A stretch of 64,000 nucleotides of DNA from Chthonomonadaceae bacterium. GTDB lineage: Bacteria > Armatimonadota > Chthonomonadetes > Chthonomonadales > Chthonomonadaceae. The notes under the pieces are model-generated. The model searched no databases. It saw nothing but the letters and a program-made list of their open reading frames with translations, and was not told where the DNA came from. The stretch is from assembly GCA_027450145.1 (NCBI GenBank), contig DAIDKH010000005.1, positions 1 through 64,000 of the forward strand. Reading direction: 5' to 3'. Shown here piece after piece: positions 33,349-46,550 of the stretch. Numbering within the stretch: the stretch's first letter is position 1; the number at the start of each line of letters is the position of its first letter. A program made the position numbers and the translations under genes.

Positions 33349-33804
33349 ATGAATCTGGACGAACTTCAGAGCCTCGTGGATATGGTTCAAAATTCCCAAT
33401 TGCGCGAGATTACCCTGAAGCAGGGGGATCGCCGGCTTACGATAAGGCGTGATCCGCAGCTTGGTGCCACGCAGACATTAAGTGACCTTGAGATGATGTC
33501 TGAGGCTTCACTTTTAGGGTCCCAGGAACTGACGACTACCGTGCATGCCCCGGAAGCGGTTTCCTATCAGGATGTATCCGCGCCGTACGTGGGTGTGTTC
33601 TGCCACTTACGCCCGATGGTTGGAATGGGTAGCCGCATCACCAATGGCCAAACTCTCTGCACGATTCAGTCAATGGATATTCATAACGAAGTCGTGGTAG
33701 AAGTGGATGGTCAGGTTATTGACATTCACGTTGAAGACAACCAACCTGTAGAGTTTGGGCAGATTCTTTACACCATAGAGGTAAACAGTTCCCCCAATGT
33801 TTGA
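33349..33804 (+). CDS. accB: Biotin carboxyl carrier protein-like, lacking the biotinyl lysine
   Basis: Homologue of the carrier subunit of acetyl-CoA carboxylase. The N-terminal AccB segment is normal (LDELQSLVDMVQNSQLREITLKQGDRRLTIRR), followed by a linker and the biotinyl domain (VGVFCHLRPMVGMGSRITNGQTLCTIQ). The site that should read AMKM or EAMKL reads QSMDIHNEV: Asp110 (codon GAT at 33676-33678) stands where the biotinylated lysine belongs. The 151-residue length and downstream part (VDGQVIDIHVEDNQPVEFGQ) are otherwise typical. It overlaps accC by eight bases. It cannot be biotinylated at that site, so it may regulate or scaffold the enzyme, like plant BADC proteins, or be decayed. Confidence 0.88.
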   Translation: MNLDELQSLVDMVQNSQLREITLKQGDRRLTIRRDPQLGATQTLSDLEMMSEASLLGSQELTTTVHAPEAVSYQDVSAPYVGVFCHLRPMVGMGSRITNGQTLCTIQSMDIHNEVVVEVDGQVIDIHVEDNQPVEFGQILYTIEVNSSPNV

Positions 33805-40997: not shown

Positions 40998-41026
40998 ATT
41001 ATGCAACTGAGACCCGAAAATGTCAA
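40998..41026 (-). promoter_or_regulatory. Promoter of the tRNA-Pro gene
   Basis: On the minus strand TTGACA (41021-41026) and CATAAT (40998-41003) are separated by 17 bases, 31 bases upstream of the mature tRNA 5' end. Confidence 0.7.
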
Positions 41027-41089
41027 GGATGTATTGAACGCAGTTTCCTCATCTTTCGCAAAAATGCGTATATCCTGAGGTTTATCACA

Positions 41090-42133
41090 GTGAATTCATC
41101 ATTCCGCTCAGACAGATGTGCATACTACCTGTTTAATCCAGGCACTACATTGGACGCTGCTAGCACCGAGCATGAGTATGTCATTCCTTTTAACCTAAAC
41201 CGCAAATACTCTGCTGCCGAAGTCATTCCTTCGTTCAACTTTGCTGGTGCTAAGGGAGTATCCGTGACCGCTTACTTGCAGGCGGTGGGTACAACTGCCA
41301 AATCACCATGGTTCAACATGGGAACTTGGATTTCGGACGGGGGTATTACGGTAAGCTCCTCGGCTGAATGCGACAATGGCAAATGGGGACACGTTGAAAC
41401 AGATACCGCTGTACTAACCGAGGATTTTTCTACGCTTACGCTGAAATTAGTTGCTAAAAGTTTGGCGAGGGAACCGCATCCTGTACTAAAGCAGGCAGGG
41501 TTATCCGTATATTGTACCGGTGCAATGGTTTGCCAAAGCGTGCACGTGCAGCCTGACAGCGTAGCGCGCATTCAGGTGCCCCTGCGTTCGCAACTAGAGT
41601 GGAAAGGTGGTCACGGCTGGTGCAGTCCCACCTCGTGCGGAATGGTTCTGGATTATTGGGCTACAATACTGGGCAATGACGGCCTTTCGGTTCCCACGCC
41701 GGTGATTGCGTCTCGCGTTTACGATGCTCTCTGGGGTGGAACGGGCAACTGGACGTTTAACATGGCATATATTGGCAGCCTGCCGCAAATGTCGGCCGTG
41801 GCACTACGCATTCAATCCGTCAGGTCATTGCAGTCTCTTCTCGCAAAACAGGTACCACCCATTGTTTCCTTATCGTACGCGACTTTGAAGCGCGAACAGC
41901 GCGCCAGTGACCCGGGACACTTAATGGTGGTCACCGGTATTACGGAGAACGGTGAGGTCATGCTCAACGATCCATATTTTAGCCCCGGCGATGAGGACGG
42001 AGGTAAGGTTGTCGCGCCGCTTTCCGTTTTCGACGAGGCCTGGAAACGGAGCAAGCGGCTGATATATCTTATTGTGCCGCAAGATTCGTTGTTATCCGCT
42101 CTTGACGACTGCTTAGGGGCCGATAATGCCTGA
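41090..42133 (+). CDS. C39-like cysteine protease
   Basis: Papain-fold peptidase of the C39_2 type. The N-terminal half (residues 1-155) looks like a beta-rich accessory domain. The protease half has the nucleophile in GHGWCSPTSCGMVLDYW (Cys178), His277 in PGHLMVVTGI and Asp294 in MLNDPYF, a full catalytic set. It has no signal peptide or membrane helix, unlike bacteriocin-processing C39 peptidases, so it probably acts inside the cell. The GTG at 41090 is chosen with CTGAGG at 41075-41080; an upstream open frame would run into the tRNA. It overlaps the STAND ATPase gene by eight bases. Its substrate is unknown. Confidence 0.75.
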   Translation: MNSSFRSDRCAYYLFNPGTTLDAASTEHEYVIPFNLNRKYSAAEVIPSFNFAGAKGVSVTAYLQAVGTTAKSPWFNMGTWISDGGITVSSSAECDNGKWGHVETDTAVLTEDFSTLTLKLVAKSLAREPHPVLKQAGLSVYCTGAMVCQSVHVQPDSVARIQVPLRSQLEWKGGHGWCSPTSCGMVLDYWATILGNDGLSVPTPVIASRVYDALWGGTGNWTFNMAYIGSLPQMSAVALRIQSVRSLQSLLAKQVPPIVSLSYATLKREQRASDPGHLMVVTGITENGEVMLNDPYFSPGDEDGGKVVAPLSVFDEAWKRSKRLIYLIVPQDSLLSALDDCLGADNA

Positions 42134-45038
42134 GCTTATCACCGTGGTGATGGCAGACGTGCCAAATAGTGCACTATTATGGGAACACAATTTTCAGAAT
42201 ATGGTGCATGCTGTCAATTGCTACGAGTCTATGGCACTACGAAGCACCGCTGACCACGGCGGGCGTGTTTTAAAGTCACACGGTGAGAACGACGGGCTGT
42301 TCTTGGTTTTTACCAGCGCTTTACAGGCAGCTCGGTGTGCTGTGGAATTGCAAAATGCGCTAACATCGCAACCGTGGGCACAAGAGCTTCCCTTTGAAGT
42401 GCGAATGGCAATTCATTGCGGTGAGGCCCAGTTTCGTGATGGTGACTATTTTGGCCCGACTGTAAACCGATGTGCCCGGTTGCGGGGAGCGGCACAGGGT
42501 GGTCAGATTTTGGTTTCTGGGGCAGTGGCGGCACTCATTAGTGAGCAACTGCCTTCCGACCAAGCACTCATCAGCTTGGGGTACGTAAGCCTGAAGGATT
42601 TGCGCACCGAGGAGGTGTGGCAGCTATGGGCGCCGGGCCTGCCAACCCATTTTGCAGGTAAGCCTGTAGGCGGTACCGAAGACCGCACAAATCTCCCCCG
42701 GTCGGCCACCTCGTTCATTGGCCGAAATAGCGAGGCAGCGAAGGTTCGTGAGCTTATACAGCGGTCGAGAATGGTGACACTGGTGGGTACTGGTGGAACT
42801 GGAAAAACCCGCTTAGCGCTTCACGTTGCCACAGAGATTACCGGCTGGTTTCCAGATGGCGTGTGGCTTTCTGAATTCGCTTCGGTTACTGACGCCTCGA
42901 TATTGATACAGTCAATCATGACATCGATTGGGCTGAAAGCCTCGGGTAGTGGAGCACTGGAGCAATCGCTCATTTCCAGCATTGGCAACCGCAGTTTGCT
43001 CATGGTTTGGGACAATTGCGAGCATATCATTGATACCTGCGCAAAGTTGACCGAGCGCCTGTTGGGGGCATGTCCGAACCTTAAGATACTTTGCACCAGC
43101 CGCGAACCACTCAAGGTTCCGGGAGAGATGACCATTAGAGTTTCTGGCCTTAAGCTGCCGGACAAATCTAGTGACTACAATCCAATCGAGCGTTTAAGCG
43201 AGGCCCTCGTGTTGTTCGAGGAGAGGGCTCAGGCCGTGCGGCCGGGATTTTGTATCACCTCGGAGAACTATAGTACCATTTCAGAAATATGCCGGCGGCT
43301 CGATGGGATTCCCCTGGCGATTGAGCTCGCTGCGGCACGAATTCGTGCAATGGGACCGGAGCAAATTGCTACGCGGCTTGGAGATAGGTTTCGATTGCTA
43401 AAAGGAAACAGCAGGACCTCTCTTCCTCATCACCAAACACTTCGGGCGCTTATAGATTGGAGCTACAACCTGCTCTCGAGCAGTGAGCGAACCATGTTGT
43501 TGCGTCTGTGCGTGTTCGCGGGTAGTTGGCATATTTCTGCAGCTGAGTCTATTTGCAGTTCCGCGGACTCACCGGAAATCGACGTCCTGGATCTCGTACT
43601 CTCGCTAACCGAGAAAAGTTTGGTGGTCTGCACAGAAGACTCAGGACGCTACCAGTTGCTCGAGACTATTAGGCAGTACGCCGTAGATCGTCTATCTGAG
43701 GAATGCAGCGCTCAAGACGTTCATCAACTGCGCATACGGCATGCAAAATGGTACGGCACCCAGGTTCAGGAGGCGCAGGGCGTGGCCATTCGCGCACATG
43801 ACGCAAACGCCTGGCTCTCTCTCGACAGCGACTATGACAACATTCGGGCAGCCTTGGAATTTTCCACCGGCTCGACGGCGTCAGAAGATTTTTCGGGTGC
43901 GGTCAACATTGCGGTTGCGTTGGTTCCATATTGGCAAAGCCGTTACCTTGTAAATGAAGGACGTAATTATTGTGAGCGCCTGCTCACTAGTGCTCAGAAA
44001 CTTGGAGTGAGAGCCCTGCTTAGCGGGCTTCTGGTAGCGTATAGCACGCTCTGCTGGAGCCAAAGTGACTACAATCACGCTAAGCAACTCGCAACGGAAG
44101 CGAGGGATATCGCACTAGAGCAGAATTCTGCACATGATGAAGCTACAGCGCTCTACACTCTAGGTCTCGTGACTTCAGATCTGAGCGACTTCGACGAAGC
44201 ACGAAGACTGTTTGCAAGTTGCCTAGCAATATATCAGCGATTGGGAGACCGTGAGGGAATTGCAAGATCCGTTTGCTGCCTTGGTTACTGTGCATTTGAA
44301 ACCGGCGATTACGAGGAGGCACGCCGACTGACCGAACAGGGTATTGACCTGCAGACGGAATTGGGCATGGTACCGGCTTACACGCGCAATACTCTTGGCA
44401 CTATACTTGAAACTCTAGGTGATTTTAATGGGGCCATAGAACAGTACAACCTAAGTTACGACTGGTTTAAGGCGACCCACCATGAGCGCGGAACCGCTCA
44501 CAGTCTACACTCCATTGGAAGCCTGCTAATCAAGACAGGTGATTTACATGAGGGACTCAGCCATCTAAGGCGCAGTGCCGCCATATTCAGGGCACTTGGC
44601 GACGTACATTCTGAGGTAGTAGTTAGAATGGATACTGCCGGTGCATTGGTGGGTAACGATTTACCTCAGGAAGCCTTAAGCGTATCGAGGGAGTGTATTG
44701 CACTCTGCTGCCAACTTGGTAGCGTGCTCACGTCTCTGCGCGCTATCCGTCAGCATGCCAGTGCATTGCAGGCTAACGGCCGGCTCGTTGAGGCAGCATT
44801 CCTTGCATTGTATGCTAATGAAAAACTCGTTGCGTTGAATGTATTGAACACGGACCGCGAGGAATTTGAGCTCGACGAGACTTTCCGTGCGGCGATGTCA
44901 ACAATCTCCGGCACTCAGTTGTCCAGTTTACGCCGCCGCATCACTGATCTTGACATCGAGTCAATGCTAATAATAATCCGTGACCATGACATCGAACGCA
45001 ATTTAGGTATTCACACGGCGCCAGGACGAGACGAATAG
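42126..45038 (+). CDS. Cyclase-like/STAND ATPase/TPR signalling protein
   Basis: Three-part protein of 970 residues. Residues about 1-165 form a class III nucleotide cyclase-like domain: Asp11 in VMADVPNSA, Asp56 in HGENDGLFLVF (metal-type positions) and FGPTVNRCARLRGAAQGGQIL, so activity is possible. Residues about 195-520 are a STAND (NB-ARC) ATPase with Walker A GTGGTGKT at 221-228, MVWDNCEH as Walker B and GIPLAIELAAAR. Residues from about 600 on are TPR-like helical repeats, for example ALYTLGLVTSDLSDFDEARRLF. There is no LuxR helix-turn-helix. It overlaps the C39-like protease gene by eight bases, so the two are coupled. Confidence 0.85.
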   Translation: MPELITVVMADVPNSALLWEHNFQNMVHAVNCYESMALRSTADHGGRVLKSHGENDGLFLVFTSALQAARCAVELQNALTSQPWAQELPFEVRMAIHCGEAQFRDGDYFGPTVNRCARLRGAAQGGQILVSGAVAALISEQLPSDQALISLGYVSLKDLRTEEVWQLWAPGLPTHFAGKPVGGTEDRTNLPRSATSFIGRNSEAAKVRELIQRSRMVTLVGTGGTGKTRLALHVATEITGWFPDGVWLSEFASVTDASILIQSIMTSIGLKASGSGALEQSLISSIGNRSLLMVWDNCEHIIDTCAKLTERLLGACPNLKILCTSREPLKVPGEMTIRVSGLKLPDKSSDYNPIERLSEALVLFEERAQAVRPGFCITSENYSTISEICRRLDGIPLAIELAAARIRAMGPEQIATRLGDRFRLLKGNSRTSLPHHQTLRALIDWSYNLLSSSERTMLLRLCVFAGSWHISAAESICSSADSPEIDVLDLVLSLTEKSLVVCTEDSGRYQLLETIRQYAVDRLSEECSAQDVHQLRIRHAKWYGTQVQEAQGVAIRAHDANAWLSLDSDYDNIRAALEFSTGSTASEDFSGAVNIAVALVPYWQSRYLVNEGRNYCERLLTSAQKLGVRALLSGLLVAYSTLCWSQSDYNHAKQLATEARDIALEQNSAHDEATALYTLGLVTSDLSDFDEARRLFASCLAIYQRLGDREGIARSVCCLGYCAFETGDYEEARRLTEQGIDLQTELGMVPAYTRNTLGTILETLGDFNGAIEQYNLSYDWFKATHHERGTAHSLHSIGSLLIKTGDLHEGLSHLRRSAAIFRALGDVHSEVVVRMDTAGALVGNDLPQEALSVSRECIALCCQLGSVLTSLRAIRQHASALQANGRLVEAAFLALYANEKLVALNVLNTDREEFELDETFRAAMSTISGTQLSSLRRRITDLDIESMLIIIRDHDIERNLGIHTAPGRDE

Positions 45039-45197
45039 ACGAATGGACGGCTGCTGAACCTGTTCACACACCGCTGTTGCTTAGCTATGTGCAGCTCTTG
45101 TTTCTGCCAACAAGCGCGGCCTTGCGCATAACCCGCTCCTTACGTCATAATGACGCCGAACTAAATCTGTGGTGAATGGGTGTTTTGGAGACAATCA

Positions 45198-46550
45198 ATG
45201 GCTGAGCTCTGGCGGGATATACAGGCGAGTGACTTCGAGATTGAGATAATACAGGCTGAACAGGAGGGGAAAGACGCAGCTGCAGTGCGCGATCTTCTAG
45301 CCAAGCAGCCCGCAGTTCTGGATACCCCAGAGGGCCAAAAGGCGGCAGTAGAGTTGCTCAGCCAAGTACGGAATCTGCCTATTGCAGAAACCTACCAGTA
45401 TGTGGAACCTGACGATCTAGAGTCCATCAAAGCGAGCCGTACTAGCTCGGGCGAATCGCTTCCTCATTGCGCATACTCTGACGCCGAAATGCTGGATCGC
45501 CTGCAAGGCGGCTGGCTGGGGAGAACCTGTGGCTGCCTGTTAGGTAAGCCTGTTGAAGGGTGGCATCGCCCTCGGCTTTACGGCCTGTTAAAAGAGTCGC
45601 AAAAGTTTCCGTTGCGTGATTACATTAGATTTGCAGATATTCCCACAGCAGTCGCGGAGAAGTACCACGTACAACAGAACGAATTTTCAGCCTGGTCTTT
45701 TTTCGCTGACAACCTTGCGGATGGTGCGCCAGCAGACGACGACATCAACTACATGGTTACCGCCCTGGAACTATGGGCGCGGCACGGTTCGGCAATAAGG
45801 CCTGTCGACGTTACAAACTTCTGGCAGGAGGCTATTCCGATAGAGAAAACGTACACTGCCGAGAGAGCCACTTATAGAAATCTGCAAAATGGGCTGTTAC
45901 CTCCTGCAACTGCGATTACCGCAAACCCTTACCGAGAGTGGATTGGCGCCCAAATTCGCGGTGACGTATGGGGCTATCTTCACCCTGGTAACCCGGAGCG
46001 CGCTGCCGAGTTCGCATGGTGTGACGCCTGCGTTAGTCACGTTAAAAATGGGATATATGGCGAGATGTGGAGCGCAGCAATGAATTCTGCTGCATTTGCC
46101 ACCAACAATATTCAGCAGATTATAATGGCTGGGTTGGCGCAGATTCCGCTAAAATCTCGGCTGCATGATGCAATAGAAGATGTTCTGGAGTGGTATGAGC
46201 TGGATGTGGACGTCGACACCGCAGTGTATCGTGTGCACGAACTATGGAATGAGGAGCGCGCACATGATTGGTGCCACACGATTTCTAATGCCATGATTGT
46301 AGCAATAGGGCTGCTGTGGGGCGGCGGAGATTACGAGAGGTCCATCTGCATCGCGGTGCAGGCATGTTTTGATACTGACTGCAACGGAGCGACGGTGGGC
46401 TCAATCTGTGGAATTCTCGCCGGCGCATCACGCTTGCCAAAGAAGTGGACAGAGGTGGTAAACGACACGCTGCACACCGAAGTGAAGGGATATGAACGGG
46501 TGTCCATCACCGATATGGCCCGCAAGACCATGGCGCTACAGGAGCGCTAG
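45198..46550 (+). CDS. ADP-ribosylglycohydrolase-family protein
   Basis: Family whose members remove ADP-ribose from modified substrates, using a binuclear metal site. The metal-binding motifs are visible: ADDDINYM near residue 180 and DTDCNGATVGSICG near 393. GGWLGRTCGCLLGKPVEGW near 105 is the family opening. It has a 100-residue N-terminal extension. Metal-site chemistry suggests it is active, but many such homologues act on other substrates. ATG at 45198 is used, with GGAG at 45186-45189; the in-frame GTG at 45180 is less likely. It starts about 160 bases after the STAND gene and is perhaps not in the same operon. Confidence 0.85.
   Translation: MAELWRDIQASDFEIEIIQAEQEGKDAAAVRDLLAKQPAVLDTPEGQKAAVELLSQVRNLPIAETYQYVEPDDLESIKASRTSSGESLPHCAYSDAEMLDRLQGGWLGRTCGCLLGKPVEGWHRPRLYGLLKESQKFPLRDYIRFADIPTAVAEKYHVQQNEFSAWSFFADNLADGAPADDDINYMVTALELWARHGSAIRPVDVTNFWQEAIPIEKTYTAERATYRNLQNGLLPPATAITANPYREWIGAQIRGDVWGYLHPGNPERAAEFAWCDACVSHVKNGIYGEMWSAAMNSAAFATNNIQQIIMAGLAQIPLKSRLHDAIEDVLEWYELDVDVDTAVYRVHELWNEERAHDWCHTISNAMIVAIGLLWGGGDYERSICIAVQACFDTDCNGATVGSICGILAGASRLPKKWTEVVNDTLHTEVKGYERVSITDMARKTMALQER

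What the first reader, a model, noticed from the sequence alone, without database searches (positions are those of the whole stretch)
41090..45038. Intracellular C39-like protease coupled to a cyclase-like/STAND/TPR protein
An eight-base overlap couples a soluble papain-fold protease with a full Cys-His-Asp set to a 970-residue protein with cyclase-like, NB-ARC-type ATPase and TPR parts. STAND NTPases act as switches in which ligand sensing by the repeat domain triggers an effector; a protease partner is a common effector in defence and regulated cell-death systems. This could be an undescribed two-gene signalling or immunity module.
Basis: inference. Interest (0 to 1): 0.7.

Follow-up and report, generated by a model that had tools for sequence, protein, structure and literature searches.

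The report
Genus-specific coupled protease and STAND pair
Two overlapping genes, one for a probably active papain-like protease that seems to have moved inside the cell and one for a common type of sensor switch, have stayed locked together in one bacterial genus; this looks like a lineage-specific signalling operon, and nothing found here shows that it is an immune system.

Summary
Gene A (41090-42133) encodes a C39-like papain-fold peptidase whose Gln/Cys/His/Asp residues are invariant in all 67 aligned homologues. Gene B (42126-45038) encodes a class III cyclase domain with all canonical residues, a STAND/AP-ATPase and a TPR superhelix. They overlap by exactly 8 nt (ATGCCTGA). All three held genomes of the genus keep the same pair, overlap and flanks, although synonymous sites are near or beyond saturation. 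This supports translational coupling.

The defence reading finds no support. A is the usually single-copy, vertically inherited member of a peptidase family found in 87 of 291 genomes of the phylum, mostly with export-signal-like N-termini. Outside the genus, none of 64 tested loci has a co-directional STAND neighbour. B is one of five cyclase-STAND paralogues in its genome. The flanks are housekeeping genes, A has no PADLOC hit, and no viral copy was found.

Best reading: after the enzyme lost its export signal (apparently shared with one sister genus), it became coupled in this genus to a duplicated cyclase-STAND-TPR regulator. Control of proteolysis by B, or sensing of A's products by B, is inferred. 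A genus-restricted variant of known parts; function untested.

The parts
41077..41080 (+). GAGG, Shine-Dalgarno-like site of gene A
   Evidence: read directly; 9 nt before the GTG
41090..42133 (+). gene A: C39-like papain-fold cysteine peptidase, 347 aa, no recognisable signal peptide
41090..41563 (+). A N-terminal beta-sandwich (jelly-roll-like) domain, residues about 1-158
   Evidence: AlphaFold model; VIA-align Z 7-9 to jelly-roll domains such as birnavirus VP2 and the Kex2 P-domain, fold-level only
41564..42085 (+). A peptidase domain, residues 159-332
   Evidence: PF13529; C39 fold
41591..41593 (+). Gln168, probable oxyanion-hole residue
   Evidence: invariant in 67 homologues
41621..41623 (+). 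Cys178, probable nucleophile (GWCSPTS)
   Evidence: invariant
41918..41920 (+). His277 (DPGHLMV)
   Evidence: invariant
41969..41971 (+). Asp294 (LNDPY)
   Evidence: invariant
42126..42133 (+). 8-nt overlap ATGCCTGA: start of B inside the end of A
   Evidence: identical in the three genus members
42126..45038 (+). gene B: cyclase-STAND-TPR protein, 970 aa
42126..42641 (+). class III cyclase homology domain; D11, K50, D56, D107, N114, R118 present
42693..43115 (+). STAND/AP-ATPase NTPase core with Walker A (GTGGTGKT) and Walker B (LLMVWDNCEH)
43116..43877 (+). STAND C-terminal part, AfsR/MalT-like region between NTPase and TPR
   Evidence: AfsR-type NCBIfam match spans residues 188-784; boundary inferred
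43878..44840 (+). TPR superhelix, residues about 585-905
   Evidence: Pfam TPR_12; model with high pLDDT over this part; fold matches LGN, Rap, NprR TPR domains

Best explanation
This is a genus-specific, translationally coupled two-gene regulatory operon. A formerly exported C39-like peptidase became cytosolic and was then joined to a duplicated cyclase-STAND-TPR regulator. Shown: both active-site sets are intact, the pair and its 8-nt overlap are conserved in all three held species of the genus, and descent of A is vertical. Inferred: A and B are made in a fixed ratio and act in one pathway. In that pathway the TPR superhelix binds a protein or peptide, ATP binding at the STAND core switches B's assembly state, and B's output is control of, or response to, A's proteolysis, possibly together with cAMP from the cyclase domain.
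For: Same 8-nt overlap ATGCCTGA, tRNA-Pro upstream and ADP-ribosylglycohydrolase downstream in G000, G049 and G050. Purifying constraint on A: dN 0.38, dS 1.6 between G000 and G049. Q168/C178/H277/D294 invariant. Cyclase residues complete in all three orthologues, and the cyclase is B's best-kept domain, 78% against about 70%. A tree: genus clade 1.0, sister G046 0.98, inside the family. B's clade is sister to the own-genome paralogue on C29, support 0.998. Distances of -8 to +10 nt encode subunits of one complex in 30.4% of E. coli pairs against 6.8% for distances over 20 nt (PMC10666635). The same window holds accB-accC, subunits of one enzyme, with the same 8-nt overlap.
Against: No experiment and no predicted complex. 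The genus sample is three genomes, so 'always paired' rests on one evolutionary event. Coupling does not prove physical contact: most short-overlap pairs in E. coli are not known complexes. The N-terminus of A in G050 is ambiguous and could carry a hydrophobic stretch. B's ligand and A's substrate are unknown.
Confidence: 0.42

Rival explanations
1. Ordinary co-expression: A is a cytosolic peptidase with a general role and B a regulator with its own targets (cAMP-type signalling). They share an operon through gene order and compact spacing, with no shared pathway.
For: B belongs to a large paralogous family (5 cyclase-STAND copies here, matches in 167 of 291 genomes), members of which mostly stand alone. 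A's relatives have unrelated neighbours. The genome has one CRP-type cNMP-binding protein.
Against: The exact 8-nt overlap is held across three diverged species, and A's last two residues N346-A347 are kept although its C-terminal tail diverges. A stable overlap is not needed for mere neighbours.
Confidence: 0.33
2. Defence or regulated cell death: the STAND protein senses an invader and unleashes the protease, as in AVAST or caspase-type systems.
For: Mechanistic analogy with STAND-protease-nuclease systems (PMC12799240) and with conflict systems that carry peptidase and cNMP-cyclase parts (PMC7159879). A evolves faster (54% between G000 and G049) than its neighbours (77-91%).
Against: No PADLOC defence model for A, only generic TPR and cyclase hits for B. 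Housekeeping neighbourhood. No phage or viral relatives. Fixed locus in the genus and vertical descent. Normal base composition. Faster change of A can equally follow from its relocation.
Confidence: 0.12
3. Peptide circuit: cytosolic A trims or destroys a peptide that B's TPR superhelix reads, in the manner of C39 leader peptidases and of Rap/NprR peptide sensors.
For: A's fold is closest to double-glycine leader peptidases (6mpz, Z 13.1), which cut leader peptides. B's TPR part matches Rap and NprR peptide-binding TPRs at Z 17-19, though LGN scores higher. Sub-threshold similarity to RiPP-associated TPR proteins HaaT and FxSxx_TPR.
Against: No precursor-peptide gene was identified at the locus (not searched systematically). 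TPR fold matches are generic. The family-level matches are far below cut-offs.
Confidence: 0.1

Closest known systems
Peptidase_C39_2 (PF13529) 'peptidase C39 family protein' of this phylum, Deinococcus, Haladaptatus and others
   Same: A is a member: same two-domain layout, same active-site residues, best-scoring Pfam family
   Different: most relatives carry a signal-like N-terminus and unrelated neighbours; A lacks a visible signal and its gene overlaps B
Mclx-type proteins of Mycobacterium (cyclase - AAA/NB-ARC - LuxR HTH; PMC4452763)
   Same: N-terminal class III cyclase followed by a STAND-type ATPase
   Different: B ends in a TPR superhelix and has no HTH hit; it keeps all cyclase residues, whereas two of the three Mclx proteins do not (PMC4452763)
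AfsR/SARP-type and other STAND-TPR regulators
   Same: NTPase plus TPR half aligns to the AfsR model, residues 188-784
   Different: cyclase instead of the BTAD/HTH DNA-binding part; score far below the AfsR cut-off
AVAST type 1 (STAND with trypsin-like protease and MBL nuclease; PMC12799240)
   Same: a STAND switch encoded with a protease
   Different: C39-like rather than trypsin-like protease, separate gene, no nuclease gene, no Avs model hit
NTP-dependent conflict systems of multicellular bacteria (PMC7159879)
   Same: peptidase and cNMP-cyclase modules recur there as effector or signal parts
   Different: no MoxR/vWA, EAD or related core component next to the pair

Membership tests
C39-like peptidases (PF13529) | profile match above curated cut-off | tested here: met
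   51.3 bits against 24
C39-like peptidases (PF13529) | Cys-His-Asp active site with preceding Gln | tested here: met
   Q168, C178, H277, D294 invariant in 67 homologues
C39-like peptidases (PF13529) | papain-like fold of the C39 type | tested here: met
   Z 13.1 to 6mpz (129 residues, rmsd 2.5) and 3erv (160 residues, rmsd 3.4)
C39-like peptidases (PF13529) | proteolytic activity | not testable with these tools
   needs an assay
Class III nucleotidyl cyclases | two metal Asp, substrate-specifying residues, transition-state Asn and Arg | tested here: met
   D11, D56, K50, D107, N114, R118 in all three orthologues; a 2-residue insertion precedes D56, also seen in about a third of the family members aligned
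Class III nucleotidyl cyclases | cNMP synthesis | not testable with these tools
   needs an assay
STAND (AP-ATPase/AfsR-MalT type) proteins | Walker A and B, NTPase core, C-terminal superstructure repeats | tested here: met
   GTGGTGKT, LLMVWDNCEH, TPR superhelix
STAND (AP-ATPase/AfsR-MalT type) proteins | NB-ARC/AAA_16 Pfam hit above cut-off | tested here: not met
   16.9 of 23.5 and 25.1 of 32.6 bits; this is a detection threshold and not a structural feature, so the motif evidence carries the assignment
Mclx proteins | C-terminal LuxR HTH | tested here: not met
   no HTH family in Pfam or NCBIfam
AVAST / known defence systems | match to PADLOC defence models and partner genes | tested here: not met
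   no Avs model; only TPR, PDC-S39 and PycC weak hits for B, none for A
AVAST / known defence systems | protection against phage | not testable with these tools
   needs an experiment

The most novel reading that the evidence does not exclude
A previously undescribed signalling module in which a cyclase-STAND-TPR switch directly gates a cytosolic C39-like protease, created when an exported peptidase lost its signal and was captured by a duplicated STAND gene.
Probability: 0.2. Interest if true: 0.65.

Novelty: new variant of a known kind. Interest (0 to 1): 0.4.

Why it matters
Cyclase-STAND-TPR proteins are abundant in this phylum, up to dozens of candidate matches per genome, and their outputs are largely unknown. 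A member locked by overlap to a single enzyme gives one of the few testable guesses about what such a switch controls. It is also a small example of an exported enzyme apparently being internalised and recruited into a regulatory operon.

Tried and rejected
Defence-island reading: PADLOC and Pfam on the neighbours found housekeeping genes only. Horizontal or mobile origin: no phage or viral-contig relative, distant plasmid relatives only, normal GC, vertical tree. Phylum-wide pairing: 64 loci outside the genus, none co-directional; the single nearby STAND gene (G103, L117) is a convergent SARP-type gene. Longer A starting inside the tRNA-Pro gene: rejected, because the conserved upstream stretch is the tRNA-Pro promoter on the other strand and a good GAGG-GTG start lies downstream. 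Empty-site test in sister genera: inconclusive, because the flanking genes are rearranged there. Structure of B's NTPase: model too poor (pLDDT mostly below 50). Solved relatives of A by sequence: none. Search in L045's phylum: not possible with the tool.

Full report
What is there. Gene A starts at a GTG at 41090, with GAGG 9 nt upstream, and ends at 42133; gene B starts at ATG 42126 and ends at 45038. The overlap is ATGCCTGA, 8 nt, B being in the +1 frame relative to A. A is 347 aa: an N-terminal beta-sandwich followed by a papain-fold C39-like peptidase domain. B is 970 aa: class III cyclase homology domain, STAND NTPase of the AfsR/AP-ATPase type, TPR superhelix.

Are the parts intact? In an alignment of A with homologues from the phylum, Gln168, Cys178, His277 and Asp294 are invariant in all 67 sequences that cover them. 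In B the metal aspartates D11 and D56, K50, D107, N114 and R118 are all present in the three orthologues. A two-residue insertion before D56 (GENDG, usually GEGDS) occurs in about a third of the other family members aligned. Walker A and B are intact. The cyclase is the best-kept part of B between species (78% against about 70% elsewhere), so a pure relic is unlikely. Cyclase and protease activity were not tested.

Coupling. In the two other held members of the genus, G049 and G050, the pair is present with the same overlap sequence, the same tRNA-Pro upstream and the same ADP-ribosylglycohydrolase downstream; in G050 gene B is split over two contigs. A is only 47-55% identical between these species, with dN 0.38 and dS 1.6 for the closest pair and dS out of range for B. 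The C-terminal tail of A diverges, but its last two residues, which lie in the overlap, are invariant. Published work shows that -8 nt overlaps are the third most common class and that -8 to +10 nt pairs encode subunits of one complex in 30.4% of E. coli cases against 6.8% for wider spacing (PMC10666635). The same window has accB-accC, a known complex, with the same 8-nt overlap. Translational coupling is therefore well supported; a physical complex is only a fair guess.

History of A. A relatives occur in 87 of 291 genomes of the phylum, mostly one per genome, and A is the only PF13529 protein of its own genome. The tree places A inside its own family's clade (0.996), with G046 as sister (0.98), and the genus on a long branch. 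Most relatives have a strongly hydrophobic N-terminal stretch behind a start codon, consistent with export; G000, G049, G046 and G045 do not, and G050 is ambiguous. The simplest reading is loss of export first, pairing with B later; this rests on a simple hydropathy test and not on a trained signal-peptide predictor.

History of B. B has four cyclase-STAND paralogues in its genome (plus SARP-type STAND proteins), and homologues in 167 of 291 genomes. Its clade is the genus trio, with the own-genome paralogue on contig C29 as sister (0.998). Most homologues examined have no overlapping upstream gene.

Is the pair older than the genus? Outside the genus 64 A loci in 63 genomes were examined with flanks of mostly 1.5-6 kb (a few cut by contig ends). 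None has a co-directional STAND neighbour; one has a convergent SARP-type gene. Two relatives on Deinococcus and Haladaptatus plasmids whose neighbours could be read also have other genes next to them. So the pair is restricted to the genus, as far as the held genomes tell.

Defence? The neighbours are mutS, acetyl-CoA carboxylase subunits, bioY, a GAF/PAS/HD-GYP regulator, tRNA-Pro, an ADP-ribosylglycohydrolase, an MCP and nuo genes (mutS and nuoG by recognition of the sequence). PADLOC finds nothing in A and only generic hits in B. No phage or viral relative was found. The analogy with AVAST type 1, where a STAND system carries a trypsin-like protease that activates a nuclease (PMC12799240), is a likeness of layout and not membership. 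The faster change of A (54%, neighbours 77-91%) is compatible with conflict but also with relocation to a new compartment.

Mechanism. Most likely B is a switch whose TPR superhelix binds a protein or peptide, whose NTPase sets the assembly state, and whose partner is the cytosolic peptidase A made from the same message; the cyclase may add a cAMP signal, for which the genome has one CRP-type receptor candidate. Shown: parts, coupling, descent. Inferred: everything about the interaction and the direction of control. A peptide circuit, in which A makes or removes the TPR ligand, is an attractive sub-model because A's nearest folds include a double-glycine leader peptidase (6mpz).

Verdict. Real, conserved in the genus, ordinary parts in an unusual combination: a new variant of a known kind, with interest 0.4.

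Noticed in passing
L169 (G046 C91) and L170 (G043 C100); window 45180-46550: A STAND/TPR gene lies directly upstream of the ADP-ribosylglycohydrolase orthologue in two other genera too (SARP-type in G043, contig-truncated in G046), so STAND next to ADP-ribosylglycohydrolase may be older than the A-B pair.
   Followed up: partly
window 40998-41026, minus strand: A near-perfect sigma-70 promoter (TTGACA-17-CATAAT) for tRNA-Pro lies between the tRNA and gene A; it explains the conserved stretch upstream of A in the three species.
   Followed up: yes
window 33797-33804: accB and accC overlap by the same 8 nt as A and B.
   Followed up: yes
L094 (G053), L132 (G054): A's relatives are fused to what looks like a glycerophosphodiester phosphodiesterase domain in two genera of the family.
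   Followed up: no
L078 (G000 C40:25500-38000): Another cyclase-STAND paralogue of this genome sits about 4 nt behind a SpoVR-like gene, another tight but different pairing.
   Followed up: no
L179 (Deinococcus wulumuqiensis plasmid): An A relative overlaps a TlpA-type disulfide reductase gene by 4 nt next to copper genes, which hints at an exported role for the family there.
   Followed up: no
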